This document shows positions 1,105-55,376 of a stretch of DNA of 61,208 nt, in pieces. Both the position numbers and the translations under genes were made by a program. The stretch's first letter is position 1. Every line of letters begins with the position of its first letter. The stretch lies in the IMG/VR virus record IMGVR_UViG_3300009085_000030, positions 1 to 61,208 of that record. The stretch is one strand, 5' to 3'. Below the pieces are notes generated by a model that ran no database searches, had not been told where the DNA came from, and was given only the letters and a program-made list of their open reading frames with translations. Source of the stretch: a virus.

Positions 1105-4005
1105 ATGCGTATCACAGCAGACCGAGTCCTCGAAACCAGCACTTCCACTGGTACCACAGCACTGACGCTGGCCGGTGCGGTCACTGGTTACCGAACCTTT
1201 GGGTCAGCGTGCGCGAACAACGACACCTGCTACTACTCGATCTGGGCCGTGGACGCTGCGGGCAACCCGACCGGCCAGTGGGAAACAGGGCTGGGCACCT
1301 GGGCGACCGGCGGCACGTTGACTCGCACAAGCGTCCATGCCAGTTCCAGTGCGGGCGCGGCTGTGGATTTTGCCGCCGGCACCAAGCGGGTCGCGATGAC
1401 CGCCGTCGCCAAGTCTTTCCCGTACGACGATGGTGTCTACGAGATGCCAGACCCAGGAACCGCCACGCAGAATACCTCGGCGCTACTGGCCGCGTTGCAA
1501 TCCGGCAAAGGTGTGGTGCAGTTCCAGGCTGGCGAGTATGTCTTCAACGGCGCTGTGACCAACACCATTGTCGGGCGCACGATTCGTGGACGAGGCGCGG
1601 CACGCACCACGCTGAAGATGGAAGCCAGCCACACGGTTGACTTCCTGTTCGTGTCGAGCGCTGGCGCCTCAGGCACAATAATCGAGGAGTTGACCTTCGA
1701 TGGCAACTGCCCCAACAGCACCAACATCTACTGCGGATTGCTGAAGGCCGACCAGAGCACGATCACAAACAAGTTCACATTACGTGACTGCAAGTTCACG
1801 AACATCCGCCTGTACCTGATCCGGCTGTGGCCCGGTTCGACTGACTTCATCATGGATCGGTGCCGGATCGAAGACGTTGAAGACTGGATGATCGAGGCGA
1901 CACCCTGGTACCGGGGAACTATCCGGGACTGCGTGTTCTTCAACTACTCGATGGACCCAACGTATAGCTCATCCACCGGCTGCATCTTGGTGATGCAAGG
2001 CGGCAGCGATGGCTGGATCATCGAGGGCAACCAGTTCTACCCGCATGTCACGAATGGATACTTCGCCATCGAGTCGGTGTGGGATGGCGAGACCCCTGTG
2101 CGCGGGATGGTGTTCGCCAACAACGTGCTGGACGCACGCAACGCGCTGAACGGCAACAACGCAGGTACTGGGGTCAGCGGATGCTTCGAGGGGTGCACGT
2201 TCACTGGCAATGTCTGGAAGAACGGCGCCGGATCAGCTCACGTTTGCGGGCTTGAAGTTGTCGGTCGACGCAATACAGTCACAGGCAATACGATCCACAA
2301 CGGTCAGTTCGCTTTTGGGAGCACCGCAAAGATAGTAGGCGACCCCAAGGGGGCTGTGGTCAGCGGCAATACGTTCATCCAGAATAGAACAGTGGCGTAT
2401 CCGGCCGAAGCGATGCGCCAGTCTGACTCGATACGGCTATACAACGCTGTTGGCGTGCTGGTAGAAGGCAACTCGTTTTGGTACGAGCAGGGCCACATGG
2501 ACGGAGGCAACTGCATCAACGTCGAGGGCTCGACGGCGGACCTTCTGACGATCCGCAACAACGTGTTCCAGCAGCACGCCATGACCAACAACACGGTTGG
2601 CATTAAGGTAGATACGACGGTGTCTGTCTCCGGCGTCATCATCGAGGGCAACACCTTCGACAAGCTGTATCGAGGTATCAACCTGGACATGACCGGCGCG
2701 TCTGAAGTCCACGTCAAGAGAAACTACTTCTACGACTGCGACTTGGACCTCAACGAGTCTGGCGGCAAGTCCATCAAGTCTGGAAACATCACAAGCCAGT
2801 TCGTAGATTCGGAGGTGAATGCAGAAGACTACGGAGTGTTCGGTGACGGTGGAGACTACACGACGCAGTTGCAAGCGGCCATTGATGCGCTCGATGTGCT
2901 GGTAGATGTCAATGGTGTCGGGCAGCGCACTCTCGCTCTACCTTCCGGCACTGTCGTCATTTCCAGCACGATCACGCTAAAAGCCGTCAACATTGTCAGT
3001 GCGTCTCGTGTGCCGAACGGCGGCACCAGGGTTATCTGGAACGGAACAGCCGGCGGCACGATGTTCCAGGCTCATGCTTCGGACTTCAATAGCTCCTTCT
3101 GGCTGTTGGAGGGCATTAACTTCCGCTCCGGCACAACAGATCCTGGCGTCATGCTCGACCTGAGCACCGCTGCCGGATATGTGGACGCCTTCTGCCGGGT
3201 GCGCGAGTGTCACTTCAACGACTGCACAAGTCACGCCATCAAGGTCGGTGGCTGGATCAACGCGCACTGGGAGCACCTGCGGTTTGACCACGTCGGCGGG
3301 TTCGCTGTGCTACTGACTGTGCCGAACTCGTCCTTGAGCCTGTCCACGTTCAGCATTGACGGCTTCACCTACGACCACAACCGCTCGACCGAGAAGGGTT
3401 GGGGCGTCATCGGCGTAAACAACGCTGCTCTCGCATCGAACGTCGGTTCAATCGAGTTGTCGAACGGCCGCATTGAAGTCAACGCCACATGGGACACGCG
3501 AGTCGCGGCTGGGACTCTTGGTGCTGCCCGTGCAGTTTTCTCCGAGTCAAGCGGAGGTACGGGCACGACGCGCAGCATCGGGTGGAAGCTGCGCAACGTC
3601 ACCTACAGCGATGCCTCCGGCATGTCGGACGATGGCATCGTGTTCCGAAACACCAGTGCCGCGAGCAGTGACTATGCCGTGTCCTTGTCCTACGATAATG
3701 TGCGCACCGCCAACTTGTCCGCGGTTTTCACCGGGGCTGTCGGCACCCGGCTGGCTGGCGTGCCAACTAACGCTCTGGCCGGCATTGGGTCCATCAACCC
3801 AGCCGCATCGAACTCCGCCTTCGTCGGGTATGGGGCGGGCAACATCATCAGCGGCGGGAACGGGTCGCCGGAGAGCGTGGTCACTGCGTCACGTGGCTCG
3901 ATATACATGCGCTACGACGGCGGAGCCGGGACGACCATGTATGTGAAAGAAACTGGCGACAACACTAACACCGGGTGGTATAAGGTGACCACTACCGCTG
4001 CCTAA
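1105..4005 (+). CDS. Tail spike protein, double right-handed beta-helix
   Basis: 966 residues. After an N-terminal head of about 110 residues, two pectate-lyase-like beta-helix blocks appear. The first opens near residue 120 (SALLAALQSGKGVVQFQAGEYVF). The second opens near residue 590 (GDYTTQLQAAIDAL, then TLALPSGTVVISSTI). Between and after them are many short N-x-F and G-N-x-F turns typical of stacked helix coils. The ALLAAL-G-V-F-G-Y start is the usual opening of phage tail spikes and pectate lyase superfamily proteins that bind or cut polysaccharide. Catalytic residues cannot be assigned by eye. It sits 8 bases after the preceding fibre gene. Host polysaccharide recognition or degradation is inferred. 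Confidence 0.8.
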   Translation: MRITADRVLETSTSTGTTALTLAGAVTGYRTFGSACANNDTCYYSIWAVDAAGNPTGQWETGLGTWATGGTLTRTSVHASSSAGAAVDFAAGTKRVAMTAVAKSFPYDDGVYEMPDPGTATQNTSALLAALQSGKGVVQFQAGEYVFNGAVTNTIVGRTIRGRGAARTTLKMEASHTVDFLFVSSAGASGTIIEELTFDGNCPNSTNIYCGLLKADQSTITNKFTLRDCKFTNIRLYLIRLWPGSTDFIMDRCRIEDVEDWMIEATPWYRGTIRDCVFFNYSMDPTYSSSTGCILVMQGGSDGWIIEGNQFYPHVTNGYFAIESVWDGETPVRGMVFANNVLDARNALNGNNAGTGVSGCFEGCTFTGNVWKNGAGSAHVCGLEVVGRRNTVTGNTIHNGQFAFGSTAKIVGDPKGAVVSGNTFIQNRTVAYPAEAMRQSDSIRLYNAVGVLVEGNSFWYEQGHMDGGNCINVEGSTADLLTIRNNVFQQHAMTNNTVGIKVDTTVSVSGVIIEGNTFDKLYRGINLDMTGASEVHVKRNYFYDCDLDLNESGGKSIKSGNITSQFVDSEVNAEDYGVFGDGGDYTTQLQAAIDALDVLVDVNGVGQRTLALPSGTVVISSTITLKAVNIVSASRVPNGGTRVIWNGTAGGTMFQAHASDFNSSFWLLEGINFRSGTTDPGVMLDLSTAAGYVDAFCRVRECHFNDCTSHAIKVGGWINAHWEHLRFDHVGGFAVLLTVPNSSLSLSTFSIDGFTYDHNRSTEKGWGVIGVNNAALASNVGSIELSNGRIEVNATWDTRVAAGTLGAARAVFSESSGGTGTTRSIGWKLRNVTYSDASGMSDDGIVFRNTSAASSDYAVSLSYDNVRTANLSAVFTGAVGTRLAGVPTNALAGIGSINPAASNSAFVGYGAGNIISGGNGSPESVVTASRGSIYMRYDGGAGTTMYVKETGDNTNTGWYKVTTTAA

Positions 4006-47321: not shown

Positions 47322-48266
47322 CTATGAACGACTAGCCTTCGGGGGATAGCTGTTCTTGGCGTGACCGCCATTCTTCACGCGGATGTACTTGCCCAGTTCG
47401 CACAGCGTGTTCTGAATGTCGTGCGCTTCCAGGCCCAGAGCGCGGAATACCTTGCCGACCTCTGGGTGCTTGCGTGCGATGAAGATCAGCGTCGGAAGGA
47501 ACTGGAGGAATTGCCGCTCGGTCAGGTCGCTGCCGCGCCCAGCCATGTCATTTGGCGACGACAGGCCCAGCAGGTACTTCATGCCCCGGCTCGAACCCGG
47601 GCCGGGGGGCGCCCAGACCATGCGGTCGAGCCAGCAGTCATCATCGTCGGGGCGGAACACCCAACGCAGGTCCGCCACTACCTGCCCAGCCATGAAGCCG
47701 CCGATGCCGGGCAACGCATGCAGATGCTTGGCTGTCTTCTGCATGCTGCTGCTATCAAGATAGTGGAACGGTCTGGTCCGAACGCACTTGTCAATGGCTT
47801 TGAGTACTTGCTCGATCTTCGGCCCGCCCGAGGCGCCGTTGATGATGTACGCATTGGTGAAGACCGGCGTGCCAGACTCCTTGACTTCGTACATGCGCTT
47901 CAGCACGCGTTCGTATTTCCAACCGCTGAACGGGTTACCGCCGGTAATGTGTGCCAGCGTCTCGGTTCGGTTGATCATGCGCGCCATCAACGCCGCGGCC
48001 ATCAACTGCGGCGCTGGCATCTCGTGTGCTATCGCCGGGTCCGGGTACCAGTTCTTCATCAGCCAGATGCTGACCTTGTCATCCATGCGCCGCACGTTGC
48101 ACCAGCGGGTGCCGGCCAGGATTGGGTCTGGGCTAAACACCGTCCGAGTGGGGTCCTTGTTCGCGGCCTTACGCTTACGCATGGCTTCGCGCTCGATAAT
48201 CCAGTACGCCCATTCAGCGATGCGCTCGGGGACGAAGGGGCCGGCGGTTCCGGGCGTGTCAGACAT
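47322..48266 (-). CDS. Thymine pyrophosphorylase-like hypermodification enzyme (HhH fold)
   Basis: 314 residues. Residues 45-70 (FSPDPILAGTRWCNVRRMDDKVSIWLMKN) carry the D-P-I-L and R-x-C/T-N-V-x-R motif of alpha-glutamyl/putrescinyl thymine pyrophosphorylases, followed by ARMINRTETLAHI and VFTNAYIINGA. Near 195-215, LHALPGIGGFMAGQVVADL is a helix-hairpin-helix like that of DNA glycosylases, the fold assigned to this family. The enzyme is expected to replace a pyrophosphate on hydroxymethyl-dU in DNA with an amine. It overlaps the helicase gene by eight bases. Confidence 0.8.
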   Translation of the reverse strand: MSDTPGTAGPFVPERIAEWAYWIIEREAMRKRKAANKDPTRTVFSPDPILAGTRWCNVRRMDDKVSIWLMKNWYPDPAIAHEMPAPQLMAAALMARMINRTETLAHITGGNPFSGWKYERVLKRMYEVKESGTPVFTNAYIINGASGGPKIEQVLKAIDKCVRTRPFHYLDSSSMQKTAKHLHALPGIGGFMAGQVVADLRWVFRPDDDDCWLDRMVWAPPGPGSSRGMKYLLGLSSPNDMAGRGSDLTERQFLQFLPTLIFIARKHPEVGKVFRALGLEAHDIQNTLCELGKYIRVKNGGHAKNSYPPKASRS

Positions 48267-49671
48267 GGTTGCTCCTCTTAGTGCGTTGGTCGTAATACCG
48301 CTTGAACAGGTTGCTGATGCGCTGCTGTCGCGCACCGTGGCCTTCCAAGGCTTCGAGCACCACTTCGTCCACAGTGTCGCGGGCGAGGATGATGTAGTTG
48401 TAGACCTTCTTGCTCTGGCCGCTGCGGCGCAGCCGGCCGATGGTCTGGTCGTAGAACAGCCTCGAGAACGTGGCGCCGAACCACGCCAGCATGTGTCCAC
48501 CCTTTTGCAGGTTGAGCCCATACTTGGAATTTGCCGGGTGCAGGACCAGCCCGGGTATCTTGCCGCGGTTCCACTGCTCGACTAGGGTCTCGATGTGCTT
48601 CTTGTCGAACTCCTTGAACTTCGGGAACGCGGCCAGCAGGCGCGGTATGTCGTGGCGGAACTGGTACGGCACCAGGATGGGCGCACCGTAGGTCTCGGCC
48701 ACGATCTCGCGCAGGGCGTCCAGCTTGGCATCGTGCACTGGGCGCCATGACCGGGCGCCTGTCTCGATGTTTGTTGTGAAGATCGCGCCGTTGGCGATCT
48801 GGCGGCACTTGATCGACAGGCTGGCGGCGGTCTCGGCTACTGCTTCTTCGTCGCCGTCGAGCGCGAAGTTCTCGAACTGTAGAAACATCTCCTCTTCCAT
48901 GCGGTTGTACAGTTCGCGGGCCTGCGGCGGCAGGTCCACCCATATCGGCACCGTGACCAGCTTGGGCACTTCTATCCAATCTTCGGCGGCGAGCCGCACC
49001 ACGCGAGGGGACATGGCTCCGGCGATGACTTCTTCAGACCCGTCCTTGGGCTCGAACTTCTTGCCCATGTATCCAGTCTTGTAGAAGTGGTTTGCGCGAA
49101 AGTCGGTGAACTGCTGACCCAGGCTCGCGCCGAAGTCCGCCAAGTACATCTGCGGCCAGACCTGCAACATGCTGCGGGGCGTCGGCGTGCCGGTCATTAC
49201 GTACCGACGCTTGAAGTGGCGCAAGCCTTTGCGCAGGGCGCGGAACCGCACGGCCCGTTGATCGGTGAACTCGGTCGACTCGTCCACCAGCAGCATGGTC
49301 CACGGCCAGGGCTTGCGGCCCAGCACCCCGGCCATCCACTTGAGGCCCTCGGGGTTGATCATGTGGATGTGGGCGGGCGCACGCAGCGCGGCCATCCGTT
49401 CGGCGGGCTTGCCGTGCACCAGCGAGAACTTCAGCTTGCGCGTGTGTTCCCACTCGCGGGCCTCTTGCCGCCACACTGCCTGGATGACGCGGATGGGCGC
49501 GACCAGCAGCACCGAGTCGATCTCGCCAGAGACAAGCATGTCGAGTATCGCAGTCAGCGCGATGATCGTTTTGCCCAACCCCATGTCGATGAAGAGCGCG
49601 CCATAGCGCCGCTTCTTCATGAAGCCGACTGCGCGGCGCTGATACCCGCGCAGTTCGAGCCTAGTCCGCAT
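48259..49671 (-). CDS. SNF2-family DNA helicase/translocase
   Basis: 470 residues from the ATG at 49671; the longer frame upstream overlaps another gene. Helicase motifs: Q-motif region RGYQRRAVGFM, Walker A DMGLGKT at 29-35, VAPIRVIQAVWRQE (Ia), VDEST (motif II), VMTGTPTPRS (III), LHPANSKYGLNLQKGG (V), and QTIGRLRRSGQSKKV (VI). This is the compact phage SNF2 type, used in replication, recombination or repair. It ends with an overlap to the hypermodification enzyme. Confidence 0.9.
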   Translation of the reverse strand: MRTRLELRGYQRRAVGFMKKRRYGALFIDMGLGKTIIALTAILDMLVSGEIDSVLLVAPIRVIQAVWRQEAREWEHTRKLKFSLVHGKPAERMAALRAPAHIHMINPEGLKWMAGVLGRKPWPWTMLLVDESTEFTDQRAVRFRALRKGLRHFKRRYVMTGTPTPRSMLQVWPQMYLADFGASLGQQFTDFRANHFYKTGYMGKKFEPKDGSEEVIAGAMSPRVVRLAAEDWIEVPKLVTVPIWVDLPPQARELYNRMEEEMFLQFENFALDGDEEAVAETAASLSIKCRQIANGAIFTTNIETGARSWRPVHDAKLDALREIVAETYGAPILVPYQFRHDIPRLLAAFPKFKEFDKKHIETLVEQWNRGKIPGLVLHPANSKYGLNLQKGGHMLAWFGATFSRLFYDQTIGRLRRSGQSKKVYNYIILARDTVDEVVLEALEGHGARQQRISNLFKRYYDQRTKRSNHV

Positions 49672-53624: not shown

Positions 53625-54230
53625 TTAGATTTCGTCGTCGTCATCCCCCTCGTCTTCATCGTCACCGTCGATGGAGTCGAATTCTTCCTCGGCGTCGAGG
53701 CGTCCGGCGAGCTTCGGCCCGTCGCCAGTCTTCTGGCAGTTGTTCAGCAACAGCGTGACACCCTTGCTGCCGTCGGTGTCGTACGGCCAGACGCCGAACG
53801 ACACGCGCATCTTGCAGCCGGCGTAGATCTCGCTCTCCTTCATGATGGGCTGGGCGCGACGGTCGACAATGCCGGGGGCGGTGTTCGACTTGAAGTTGAT
53901 CATCACCGCGCCTTCCACATCGAAGGGTGCGCCGTATTCGTCATAGTCGCTGGCGAGGCGCCAGGGCATCGCGATCTTGCCGGACTTGATGCGCTCGCGG
54001 GTCTTGTCGACGCCGAACTTGGCTTCCGCGGCTTCGATGCACGCGAGCTTGAGGGCCTTCATCTCGGGGGACTTGGCCGCGTCCTTGTCGAACACCAGCA
54101 GCACTGAATACTGCGGGTCCTTGGCGGGCTTGCTCTTCGTCGCAGGGAAAGCAAACGGCTTGAACAGGTGGACGAACGTCGCCGTACCGATGGGCGACTG
54201 GAGCGACTTGCGCTCCTTCTTATCTGCCAT
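53625..54230 (-). CDS. ssDNA-binding protein (DUF2815, gp2.5-like)
   Basis: 201 residues; GGAGC before the ATG. DUF2815 pattern: SPIGTATFVHLFKPFAFPATKSKPAKDPQYSVLLVFDKDAAKSPEMKALKLACIEAA, then PWRLASDYDEYGAPFDVEGAVMINFKS, and PIMKESEIYAGCKMRVSFGVWPYDTDGSKGVTLLLNNCQ. An OB-fold is typical. The C-terminus is strongly acidic (EEEFDSIDGDDEDEGDDDDEI), as in gp2.5 and SSB, for contacts with polymerase and helicase. It is located between recombination and polymerase genes. Confidence 0.85.
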   Translation of the reverse strand: MADKKERKSLQSPIGTATFVHLFKPFAFPATKSKPAKDPQYSVLLVFDKDAAKSPEMKALKLACIEAAEAKFGVDKTRERIKSGKIAMPWRLASDYDEYGAPFDVEGAVMINFKSNTAPGIVDRRAQPIMKESEIYAGCKMRVSFGVWPYDTDGSKGVTLLLNNCQKTGDGPKLAGRLDAEEEFDSIDGDDEDEGDDDDEI

Positions 54231-54273: not shown

Positions 54274-54308
54274 CTTCCTAAACGACTCACAAGGAGTATT
54301 TTAGGAAG
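54274..54308. other. Stable stem-loop in the RNA-rich gap
   Basis: CTTCCTAAA-cg-ACTC-acaag-GAGT-at-TTTAGGAAG: a 9-bp and 4-bp stem around a five-base loop with a symmetric 2x2 internal loop. It lies 44 bases upstream of the ssDNA-binding protein start on the minus strand and downstream of the permuted tRNA. It may stabilise or end the RNA precursor, or control the next gene. Confidence 0.65.
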
Positions 54309-54399
54309 CACCCCGCCGTGCGTACCTGCCGTGCGAGGAAGCTTCGGGCGGCTGAGCCCCGCGCTGTTCTACGTTCGAACGAAAACGATTAACAAAGTT

Positions 54400-54489
54400 C
54401 CTGTCGCTCTACCGCTAAGCTAGCATCCCTTGGAACACCCAGACGGGCGCTGTGGAGGGACGCACAGGGATCGAACCTGTGTCTACAGG
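54400..54489 (-). tRNA. Circularly permuted tRNA gene, split in the anticodon loop
   Basis: Minus strand, in transcript order: anticodon-stem 3' strand CCTGT (54489-54485), AGAC, T arm ACAGG-TTCGATC-CCTGT (54480-54464), acceptor 3' strand GCGTCCC (54463-54457), discriminator T, CCA (54455-54453), 23 spacer bases, then acceptor 5' strand GGGATGC (54429-54423), TA, D arm GCTT-AGCGGTA-GAGC (54420-54406), G, anticodon-stem 5' strand ACAGG (54404-54400). Rejoined, the acceptor stem has 7 pairs (one G-U), the D stem 4, the anticodon stem 5 and the T stem 5, with intact T- and D-loop consensus. The anticodon depends on where the ends are cut and joined. All simple 7-base joins put A at position 33, so identity cannot be given. 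No colinear halves exist nearby, and the D-arm consensus argues against tmRNA. Confidence 0.75.
54430..54452 (-). other. Spacer joining the mature 3' and 5' ends of the permuted tRNA
   Basis: 23 bases between the CCA and the G1 of the permuted tRNA. RNase P would cut on its 3' side at G1 and a 3' processing enzyme would trim to CCA. A similar excised segment exists in permuted tmRNA and permuted algal tRNA precursors. Confidence 0.6.
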
Positions 54490-54496
54490 AAACATG

Positions 54497-54575
54497 GTTG
54501 TCGTAGTCAGTGCGCTTCACGATACCGATGTCAAGGCAAGTCAATAACGACAGGGTCAGTGACTATAGCGACAAC
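54497..54575 (-). other. Leader hairpin ahead of the tRNA 3' half
   Basis: On the minus strand GTTGTCG (54575-54569), TAG, TAGTCA (54565-54560) pair with TGACTA-CGACAAC (54509-54497), a 13-bp stem with a 3-base bulge and a 50-base loop. It ends seven bases before the anticodon-stem strand, so it could position a cut in the anticodon loop. Confidence 0.6.
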
Positions 54576-54602
54576 GATAACGCAGCCTTGAACCTGTACT
54601 CC

Positions 54603-55376
54603 TTAGTCGTTGATGAACGGGGTCATCAGCAGTGCGACCAGCGGCTCGCTGACGTTGCCCTCGACCACGACGGTCTCGTTGGCGCGCATGCGCGCCTGCT
54701 TGAGTTCGACCAGCAACTTGTCCACCAGTGCGAGTGCCACGGCTTTCTGGTTCGTGGTGCACGCGCCTGAGCGAACGACAGTCGTGAAGATACCGACGAC
54801 GTTGTCTTTGGTCACAGCCTGCACCTGGGCAGGGTGCTTGTCAGTGGGCGGCGCCATCACGACAGGCGTCATGACCTTCTCGGTCTTCGTATTCGTCTCG
54901 GGGTGCACCGCGACCCAGACATGGTTGCCCGAGGCGGGGTCTTTCACCCACGCCTTCGAACCGGCCAGTGTCGGCATCGTCTCGAACAGTTCGCGGATCT
55001 TGACCATGCGGGCCTCCAGGCCGAGCAACTGGTCCACCGGCATGTCGCGCAGCAGCACCTGCCCGTTCCACATCACGCTCGCCGTGGCGATGCGGTTCGT
55101 GGCGTTCTTCTGGTACTGCAAGTCCTCCGACTTGCCGAAGATGTCGAACGCGTATTGCAGCGTATCCACTACGGTCGTGGTCACCTGCTTTTCTTCGCTG
55201 GCCTGCTGCTCCAGCACCTTGTTCGCAGGCGTGTCTTCGATCATCGCCAGCGACTTGCTGTGGCCGAAGAAGAACTCCGACGGGCTCTTCAGCTTGTGGA
55301 TGGTTTCGGTGTGCAGTTTGTTCCACGCGGCGACGCGCGTCTTTTCCGCGGCCAATACTTCGTGCAGCTTTGACAT
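54603..55376 (-). CDS. DUF7873-like early protein
   Basis: 257 residues. The opening LHEVLAAEKTRVAAWNKLHTETIHKLKSPSEFFFGHSKSLAMIEDTPANKVLEQQASEEKQVTTTVVDTLQYAFDIFGK, followed by LRDMPVDQLLGLEARMVKIRELFETMPTL, matches a conserved phage family of unknown function often found next to recombination nucleases. Helical throughout with a beta patch near 155-180. The RNA-rich gap follows its stop. Confidence 0.7.
   Translation of the reverse strand: MSKLHEVLAAEKTRVAAWNKLHTETIHKLKSPSEFFFGHSKSLAMIEDTPANKVLEQQASEEKQVTTTVVDTLQYAFDIFGKSEDLQYQKNATNRIATASVMWNGQVLLRDMPVDQLLGLEARMVKIRELFETMPTLAGSKAWVKDPASGNHVWVAVHPETNTKTEKVMTPVVMAPPTDKHPAQVQAVTKDNVVGIFTTVVRSGACTTNQKAVALALVDKLLVELKQARMRANETVVVEGNVSEPLVALLMTPFIND

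What the first reader, a model, noticed from the sequence alone, without database searches (positions are those of the whole stretch)
54400..54489. Circularly permuted tRNA gene in a phage
The 3' half with T arm and CCA precedes the 5' half with D arm on the minus strand, 23 bases apart. All four stems form when the halves are rejoined: acceptor 7 bp with one G-U, D 4 bp, anticodon 5 bp, T 5 bp. Permuted tRNA genes are known from some red and green algae and a few archaea, and permuted tmRNA from several bacterial groups. I know of no established phage case, but recent literature should be checked. The ends sit in the anticodon loop. The product might be ligated, or stay as a two-piece nicked tRNA, for example a decoy for host anticodon nucleases. 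Such a decoy role is speculation.
Basis: partly seen in the sequence, partly recalled or inferred. Interest (0 to 1): 0.95.

Follow-up and report, generated by a model that had tools for sequence, protein, structure and literature searches.

The report
Inside-out tRNA mimic beside DUF7873
The swapped tRNA halves are real, but they are one folded part of a larger, previously undescribed RNA that sits next to an uncharacterised protein gene (DUF7873) in many phages and bacterial chromosomes, so this looks like a widespread RNA-protein pair built around a tRNA look-alike rather than an oddly arranged tRNA gene.

Summary
Minus strand 54489-54400 forms all four tRNA stems with the halves swapped; a covariance model built without the window scores 56.7 bits, E=1e-18. 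The "tRNA gene" reading is not supported: ARAGORN finds none, no joined anticodon loop has U33, and the module lies inside a ~290-nt structured RNA (about 54595-54303) with conserved 5' and 3' parts.

The RNA directly follows a DUF7873 gene (54603-55376). I fetched 177 DUF7873 loci (some repeats) from phages of many hosts and from Streptomyces, Nonomuraea, Myxococcus and cyanobacterial chromosomes. A structure scan finds the module within 1.2 kb downstream in 161, two copies in 59; the covariance model recovers nearly all the rest. Acceptor stems come in 112 sequences that still pair.

The closest known thing is the tRNA mimic of bacterial Y RNA (YrlA). My model also finds modules upstream of Ro60 genes, but Ro60 is absent from the window, and three genomes carry both systems at separate loci. 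Best reading: a Y-RNA-like, DUF7873-associated RNP whose tRNA mimic recruits or occupies tRNA-handling factors. Many phage relatives carry CCA and an RNase P-type leader before G1. Expression, binding and function are untested.

The parts
54400..54489 (-). Circularly permuted tRNA-like module: anticodon-stem 3' strand 54489-54485, variable loop 54484-54481, T arm 54480-54464, acceptor 3' strand 54463-54457, position 73 at 54456, CCA 54455-54453, linker 54452-54430, acceptor 5' strand 54429-54423, positions 8-9 54422-54421, D arm 54420-54406, position 26 at 54405, anticodon-stem 5' strand 54404-54400
   Evidence: sequence; leave-window-out covariance model 56.7 bits E 1e-18; MFE fold; YrlA 24 bits
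54430..54452 (-). Linker between CCA and G1; forms a 7-bp hairpin AGCGCCC-GUCU-GGGUGUU next to the acceptor stem
   Evidence: hairpins of 6 bp or more in 58 of 91 longer linkers of relatives
54569..54582 (-). Conserved CGTTATCGTTGTCG element of the 5' domain of the RNA
   Evidence: alignment of 11 closest relatives
54305..54345 (-). Conserved 3' hairpin: variable stem, conserved loop ACGGCAGGTACGCACG
   Evidence: similar loop (GGCWACG) in the actinobacterial RNAs
54303..54595 (-). Probable extent of the structured non-coding RNA; transcript ends not determined
   Evidence: conserved block in 11 relatives, 28 of 40 predicted pairs with changes on both sides
54603..55376 (-). DUF7873 protein (PF25283, E 3e-60), 257 aa, directly upstream; its homologues accompany the RNA elsewhere
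   Evidence: confident AF2 model, pLDDT 95.5

Best explanation
The feature is the tRNA-mimic module of a ~290-nt structured non-coding RNA that forms one unit with the DUF7873 gene upstream. The module has a tRNA elbow (T and D arms) and acceptor stem, but the chain enters and leaves through the anticodon stem, which continues into the rest of the RNA; this is the architecture of the bacterial Y RNA YrlA. Shown: the RNA's structure by covariation, and its coupling to DUF7873 across phages and chromosomes. Inferred: DUF7873 binds the non-tRNA parts of the RNA (conserved 5' element and 3' hairpin loop), while the tRNA-like face is held by factors that recognise tRNA elbows and acceptor stems (maturation or modification enzymes, RNase P, or a nuclease), so that the RNP tethers or sequesters them. 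In many phage relatives RNase P probably cuts before G1 and leaves a two-piece RNA held together by its stems; the window copy, with a hairpin linker, may stay closed.
For: Same module within 1.2 kb downstream of DUF7873 in 161 of 177 loci, two copies in 59, against 6 loci with hits elsewhere; the model recovers it in most of the 16 misses. 183 distinct modules; 112 acceptor 3' sequences. Leave-window-out model E 1e-18. In an alignment chosen by DUF7873 homology, 28 of 40 predicted pairs change on both sides and are kept. In 149 actinobacterial genomes the three best module hits are the three DUF7873 loci. The same module lies upstream of a Ro60 gene in all five TROVE genomes (L180). A solved Y RNA superposes on tRNA as a circular permutation (PMC11472068). 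Sampled chromosomal neighbours of DUF7873 are mostly unrelated genes, so the unit seems to be protein plus RNA. RNase P-type leader C(-4)U(-3)A(-2)U(-1): 26 of 34 short CCA-bearing phage linkers end in AU.
Against: No expression, binding or processing data. DUF7873 has no confident fold relative in the PDB or BFVD, so RNA binding is inferred from neighbourhood alone. The window copy has one module where many relatives have two. The scan that collected modules requires pairing, which inflates the pair percentages (the shuffle control, the model hits and one search do not rest on it). Some loci come from the same or near-identical contigs.
Confidence: 0.65

Rival explanations
1. It is a genuine Y RNA that works with the host's Ro60/Rsr protein, the neighbouring DUF7873 being incidental.
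For: YrlA is the only relevant Rfam match; the same module lies next to Ro60 genes in five actinobacterial genomes and in Rhizobium phage TM21B.
Against: No TROVE gene in the window or in 8 of 9 related phage records; score far below YrlA's gathering score (24 against 69); genomes with both proteins keep two separate RNAs, one by each gene; the RNA has 5' and 3' parts that the 114-position YrlA model lacks.
Confidence: 0.12
2. The phage RNA is matured by RNase P and 3' trimming into a two-piece, CCA-ended, tRNA-like molecule that can be charged or act as a decoy, similar in topology to two-piece tmRNA.
For: CCA in 79 of 107 phage modules against 15 of 113 chromosomal ones; leader CUAU before G1 in short phage linkers, p 6e-15, matching RNase P preferences in PMC9433436; two-piece tmRNA is known in phages.
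Against: The window's linker is a hairpin ending in AA; linkers ending in GG that could pair with CCA occur in other phages (11 of 32 longer ones); chromosomal members mostly lack CCA; no tmRNA match above threshold.
Confidence: 0.15
3. It is a circularly permuted tRNA gene whose product is ligated to a decoding tRNA.
For: All four stems, CCA, conserved T and D loop residues.
Against: No U33 in any joined loop here, no clear enrichment of usable loops in relatives, larger conserved RNA around it, CCA-less members with short linkers in chromosomes, ARAGORN negative.
Confidence: 0.03
4. It is a cis-acting tRNA-like element that controls processing or stability of the DUF7873-SSB mRNA.
For: It lies between two co-directional genes with no recognisable own promoter or terminator on its strand.
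Against: The downstream gene differs from genome to genome while the RNA stays with DUF7873, including chromosomes where the next gene is unrelated or on the other strand; at L113 the RNA lies on the opposite strand.
Confidence: 0.05

Closest known systems
Bacterial Y RNA of the YrlA type (Rfam RF02553; Salmonella YrlA; PDB 6CU1)
   Same: tRNA fold entered through the anticodon stem, closed acceptor stem, T and D arms with tRNA consensus; the same covariance model finds modules beside Ro60 genes
   Different: no Ro60 gene; partner gene is DUF7873; longer RNA (about 290-400 nt), often two modules, conserved 3' hairpin loop; below Rfam's score threshold
Circularly permuted tRNA genes of algae and archaea
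   Same: 3' half before 5' half, short intervening sequence, CCA in many phage copies
   Different: no usable anticodon loop; embedded in a larger conserved RNA; chromosomal members mostly lack CCA
Two-piece (permuted) tmRNA, including phage tmRNA
   Same: T arm and CCA precede acceptor 5' strand; cleavage between them plausible in phage relatives
   Different: full 4-bp D stem, no G3-U70, no tmRNA model match; a tag reading frame was not looked for
GOLLD / ROOL large phage RNAs
   Same: structured RNAs found in tRNA clusters (GOLLD: PMC9569102; ROOL from memory)
   Different: no Rfam match to either family here; much smaller RNA built around tRNA mimics

Membership tests
YrlA / bacterial Y RNA | circularly permuted tRNA-like module | tested here: met
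   (full-length alignment 1-114)
YrlA / bacterial Y RNA | score above Rfam gathering threshold (69 bits) | tested here: not met
   24 bits in the window; 33-41 bits in relatives
YrlA / bacterial Y RNA | Ro60 (TROVE) gene nearby or in the genome | tested here: not met
   none in the window, none in 8 of 9 relatives; the window record may be a fragment and the host is unknown
YrlA / bacterial Y RNA | own ends pair into a Ro60-binding stem | tested here: inconclusive
   the flanks continue as other conserved elements; no closing stem in the consensus
YrlA / bacterial Y RNA | carries tRNA-type base modifications | not testable with these tools
   needs RNA
decoding tRNA / permuted tRNA gene | four tRNA stems with halves swapped | tested here: met
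decoding tRNA / permuted tRNA gene | 7-nt anticodon loop with U33 after joining | tested here: not met
   window ends give none; for relatives
decoding tRNA / permuted tRNA gene | bulge-helix-bulge splice motif at the anticodon ends | not tested
   no dedicated search was run
two-piece tmRNA | tmRNA covariance model match | tested here: not met
   none at gathering; cyano_tmRNA 8.2 bits, E 4.6
two-piece tmRNA | tag reading frame | not tested
   not looked for
DUF7873 (PF25283) | Pfam match above cut-off | tested here: met
   204 bits against 27

The most novel reading that the evidence does not exclude
DUF7873 and this RNA form a new class of bacterial and phage ribonucleoprotein, parallel to Ro60-Y RNA, in which one or two inside-out tRNA mimics serve as the docking face for tRNA-handling enzymes; in phages the mimic is often cut by RNase P into a two-piece CCA-ended form used within tRNA-rich gene clusters.
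Probability: 0.4. Interest if true: 0.85.

Novelty: new variant of a known kind. Interest (0 to 1): 0.72.

Why it matters
Inside-out tRNA mimics are known mainly from Y RNAs that partner Ro60. Here the same module is tied to an unrelated, uncharacterised protein family in hundreds of phages and bacterial chromosomes and is not covered by Rfam. It gives DUF7873 a testable role, suggests that tRNA mimicry by permutation reaches well beyond Ro60, and offers natural variants (open CCA-bearing, hairpin-closed, loop-closed) to ask what a tRNA-like fold is used for when it cannot decode.

Tried and rejected
Tandem tRNA duplication: tRNA genes in a row can show a permuted tRNA between them, and R1 hits of up to about 50 bits in genomes without DUF7873 look partly like such pairs; rejected here because no outer halves flank the module and ARAGORN finds no tRNA. 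Phage attachment site carrying a host tRNA 3' end: considered from the sequence only; the module is conserved next to DUF7873, and both halves are present. tmRNA: no model match. Literature searches on permuted tRNA in phages, tRNA mimics, DUF7873 and Y RNA in Streptomyces found no description of this RNA; the key Y RNA paper (Chen 2014, PMC4201824) is not held. PHROGs gave no family for DUF7873; PDB sequence and fold searches gave nothing convincing (weak similarity to PDB 3kdq and Vibrio phage Vp_R1 A0A2H5BQ40). DNA similarity in INPHARED found nothing. Folding the larger region as a single sequence was uninformative (z -0.8).

Full report
Observation. The minus strand at 54489-54400 reads as a tRNA with its halves exchanged: anticodon-stem 3' strand, variable loop, T arm, acceptor 3' strand, T73, CCA, 23 nt, acceptor 5' strand, TA, D arm, G26, anticodon-stem 5' strand. 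ARAGORN reports no tRNA in the window and Rfam nothing at gathering scores. With permissive thresholds on 341 bases, Rfam's YrlA (Y RNA-like) aligns end to end at 54504-54376, 24 bits, E 0.0055. A scan for the permuted pattern scored the site 45 with no hit at 36 or more in 2.4 Mb of shuffled sequence. A covariance model from 15 relatives without the window gives 56.7 bits, E about 1e-18, and nothing else full-length in the window. Folded alone, the 90 nt give exactly the four stems plus a linker hairpin.

Surroundings. The module lies between DUF7873 (54603-55376, PF25283 E 3e-60) and an Enc34-type ssDNA-binding protein (53625-54230), in a minus-strand replication cluster with DUF2800, family A DNA polymerase, an SNF2 helicase and a 5-hmdU kinase domain.

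Relatives. DUF7873 homologues were fetched from IMG/VR, INPHARED and GTDB genomes. In the nine loci looked at first (L002-L010) the gap after DUF7873 held a permuted tRNA-like module, sometimes two. Over 177 loci, 161 have at least one module within 1.2 kb downstream and 59 at least two; six loci have hits elsewhere. The covariance model R1 then found modules in most of the 16 misses, at up to 77 bits, none of them used to build it; L063 is weak, L016's lies about 2 kb away, L113's is on the other strand, and L073 ends 98 nt after the gene. Loci partly overlap in origin, so counts are not independent events; there are 183 distinct modules.

Covariation. Sixteen modules with equal loop lengths: 19 of 21 pairs change on both sides, covariation score 0.99 against 0.29 in shuffles and 0.11-0.21 in slid versions. 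These rows were chosen by a scan that asks for pairing. An alignment chosen by DUF7873 homology (A9, 11 phages of the window's group, aligned by MAFFT) recovers the same four stems, with 28 of 40 predicted pairs changed on both sides and kept.

A larger RNA. The same alignment shows conserved sequence outside the module: CGTTATCGTTGTCG upstream and, downstream, a hairpin with variable stem and conserved loop ACGGCAGGTACGCACG. In 28 actinobacterial chromosomes the RNA is about 400 nt: 5' hairpin, first module (in many), a conserved CTCAGACTCTCGCTCCAGACTCAGCAT, second module, and a 3' GC hairpin with loop GGCWACG. So the feature is a domain of a structured RNA, about 54595-54303 in the window. 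Ends are not determined; no promoter or terminator stood out on this strand.

Link to Y RNA. A solved Y RNA (6CU1) superposes on tRNA as a circular permutation (PMC11472068), the architecture seen here. In 149 actinobacterial genomes three have DUF7873; the three best module hits (74, 68, 64 bits) sit just downstream of those genes. Five genomes have TROVE/Ro60; in each a module hit (36-55 bits) lies just upstream of a TROVE gene, as for L180 with two modules. Three genomes have both, at separate places. Rhizobium phage TM21B also has both. The window has no TROVE. The module is therefore shared by two systems, and this RNA belongs with DUF7873.

Processing. Phage modules carry CCA in 79 of 107 cases, chromosomal ones in 15 of 113, where the linker is mostly 5-7 nt. 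Of 34 short CCA-bearing phage linkers 26 end in A(-2)U(-1), with C(-4)U(-3) favoured (binomial p 6e-15 against linker composition). U(-1), A(-2) and C(-4) are the RNase P leader determinants in PMC9433436, so cutting before G1 is likely there. Of 32 longer CCA-bearing linkers, 11 end in GG, able to pair with CCA, which that paper finds inhibitory. The window's linker is a hairpin ending in AA. Usable anticodon loops are not clearly enriched (35% against 31%), so decoding is unlikely.

DUF7873. AlphaFold gives a confident model (pLDDT 95.5) without a convincing relative. Invariant residues are A9, L117, E121, W143, A228, R229 and N233. Sampled chromosomal neighbours are mostly unrelated genes. 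Many phage loci lie inside tRNA clusters.

Conclusion. Shown: a real, covarying, permuted tRNA-like module, part of a larger RNA coupled to DUF7873 across phages and bacteria. Inferred: an RNP in which DUF7873 holds the RNA and the mimic engages tRNA-handling factors. Not shown: expression, processing, binding, function. Known relatives are YrlA and, in topology, two-piece tmRNA, both already reported in phages. No paper found in the library describes a DUF7873-linked RNA, but the main Y RNA papers could not be read.

Noticed in passing
L181 (Rhizobium phage RHph_TM21B 111800-116500), L011:41-111 and 626-701: The phage encodes a TROVE/Ro60 protein with two module hits upstream (likely unannotated Y RNAs), in addition to its separate DUF7873 RNA.
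   Followed up: partly
L180:275-1858 and 1972-2280 (minus): Actinobacterial Ro60 gene with two Y RNA-like modules directly upstream, both far below Rfam's YrlA threshold: YrlA may be under-detected in actinobacteria.
   Followed up: partly
L019:4013-4096 (Klebsiella phage vB_KpM_Centimanus): Public annotation calls 'tRNA-Stop(tta)' over part of this RNA; probably a misreading of the permuted module.
   Followed up: no
L113:2683-2915 (minus): In a Myxococcota MAG the two modules lie upstream of DUF7873 on the opposite strand.
   Followed up: no
window 47322-48521 (minus): 5-hmdU DNA kinase helical domain (PF18723): the phage may carry hypermodified thymine in its DNA.
   Followed up: no
window 54308-54274 (minus): A second hairpin CTTCCTAAA...TTTAGGAAG overlaps the end of the 3' hairpin; L003 has a comparable GGGTTTCCCAAA...TTTTGGGAAACCC. 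Possibly an alternative fold.
   Followed up: no
L010:2072-2600 (Gordonia phage Phendrix): A full tmRNA (Rfam 89 bits) not listed in the record's annotation, inside the tRNA cluster.
   Followed up: no
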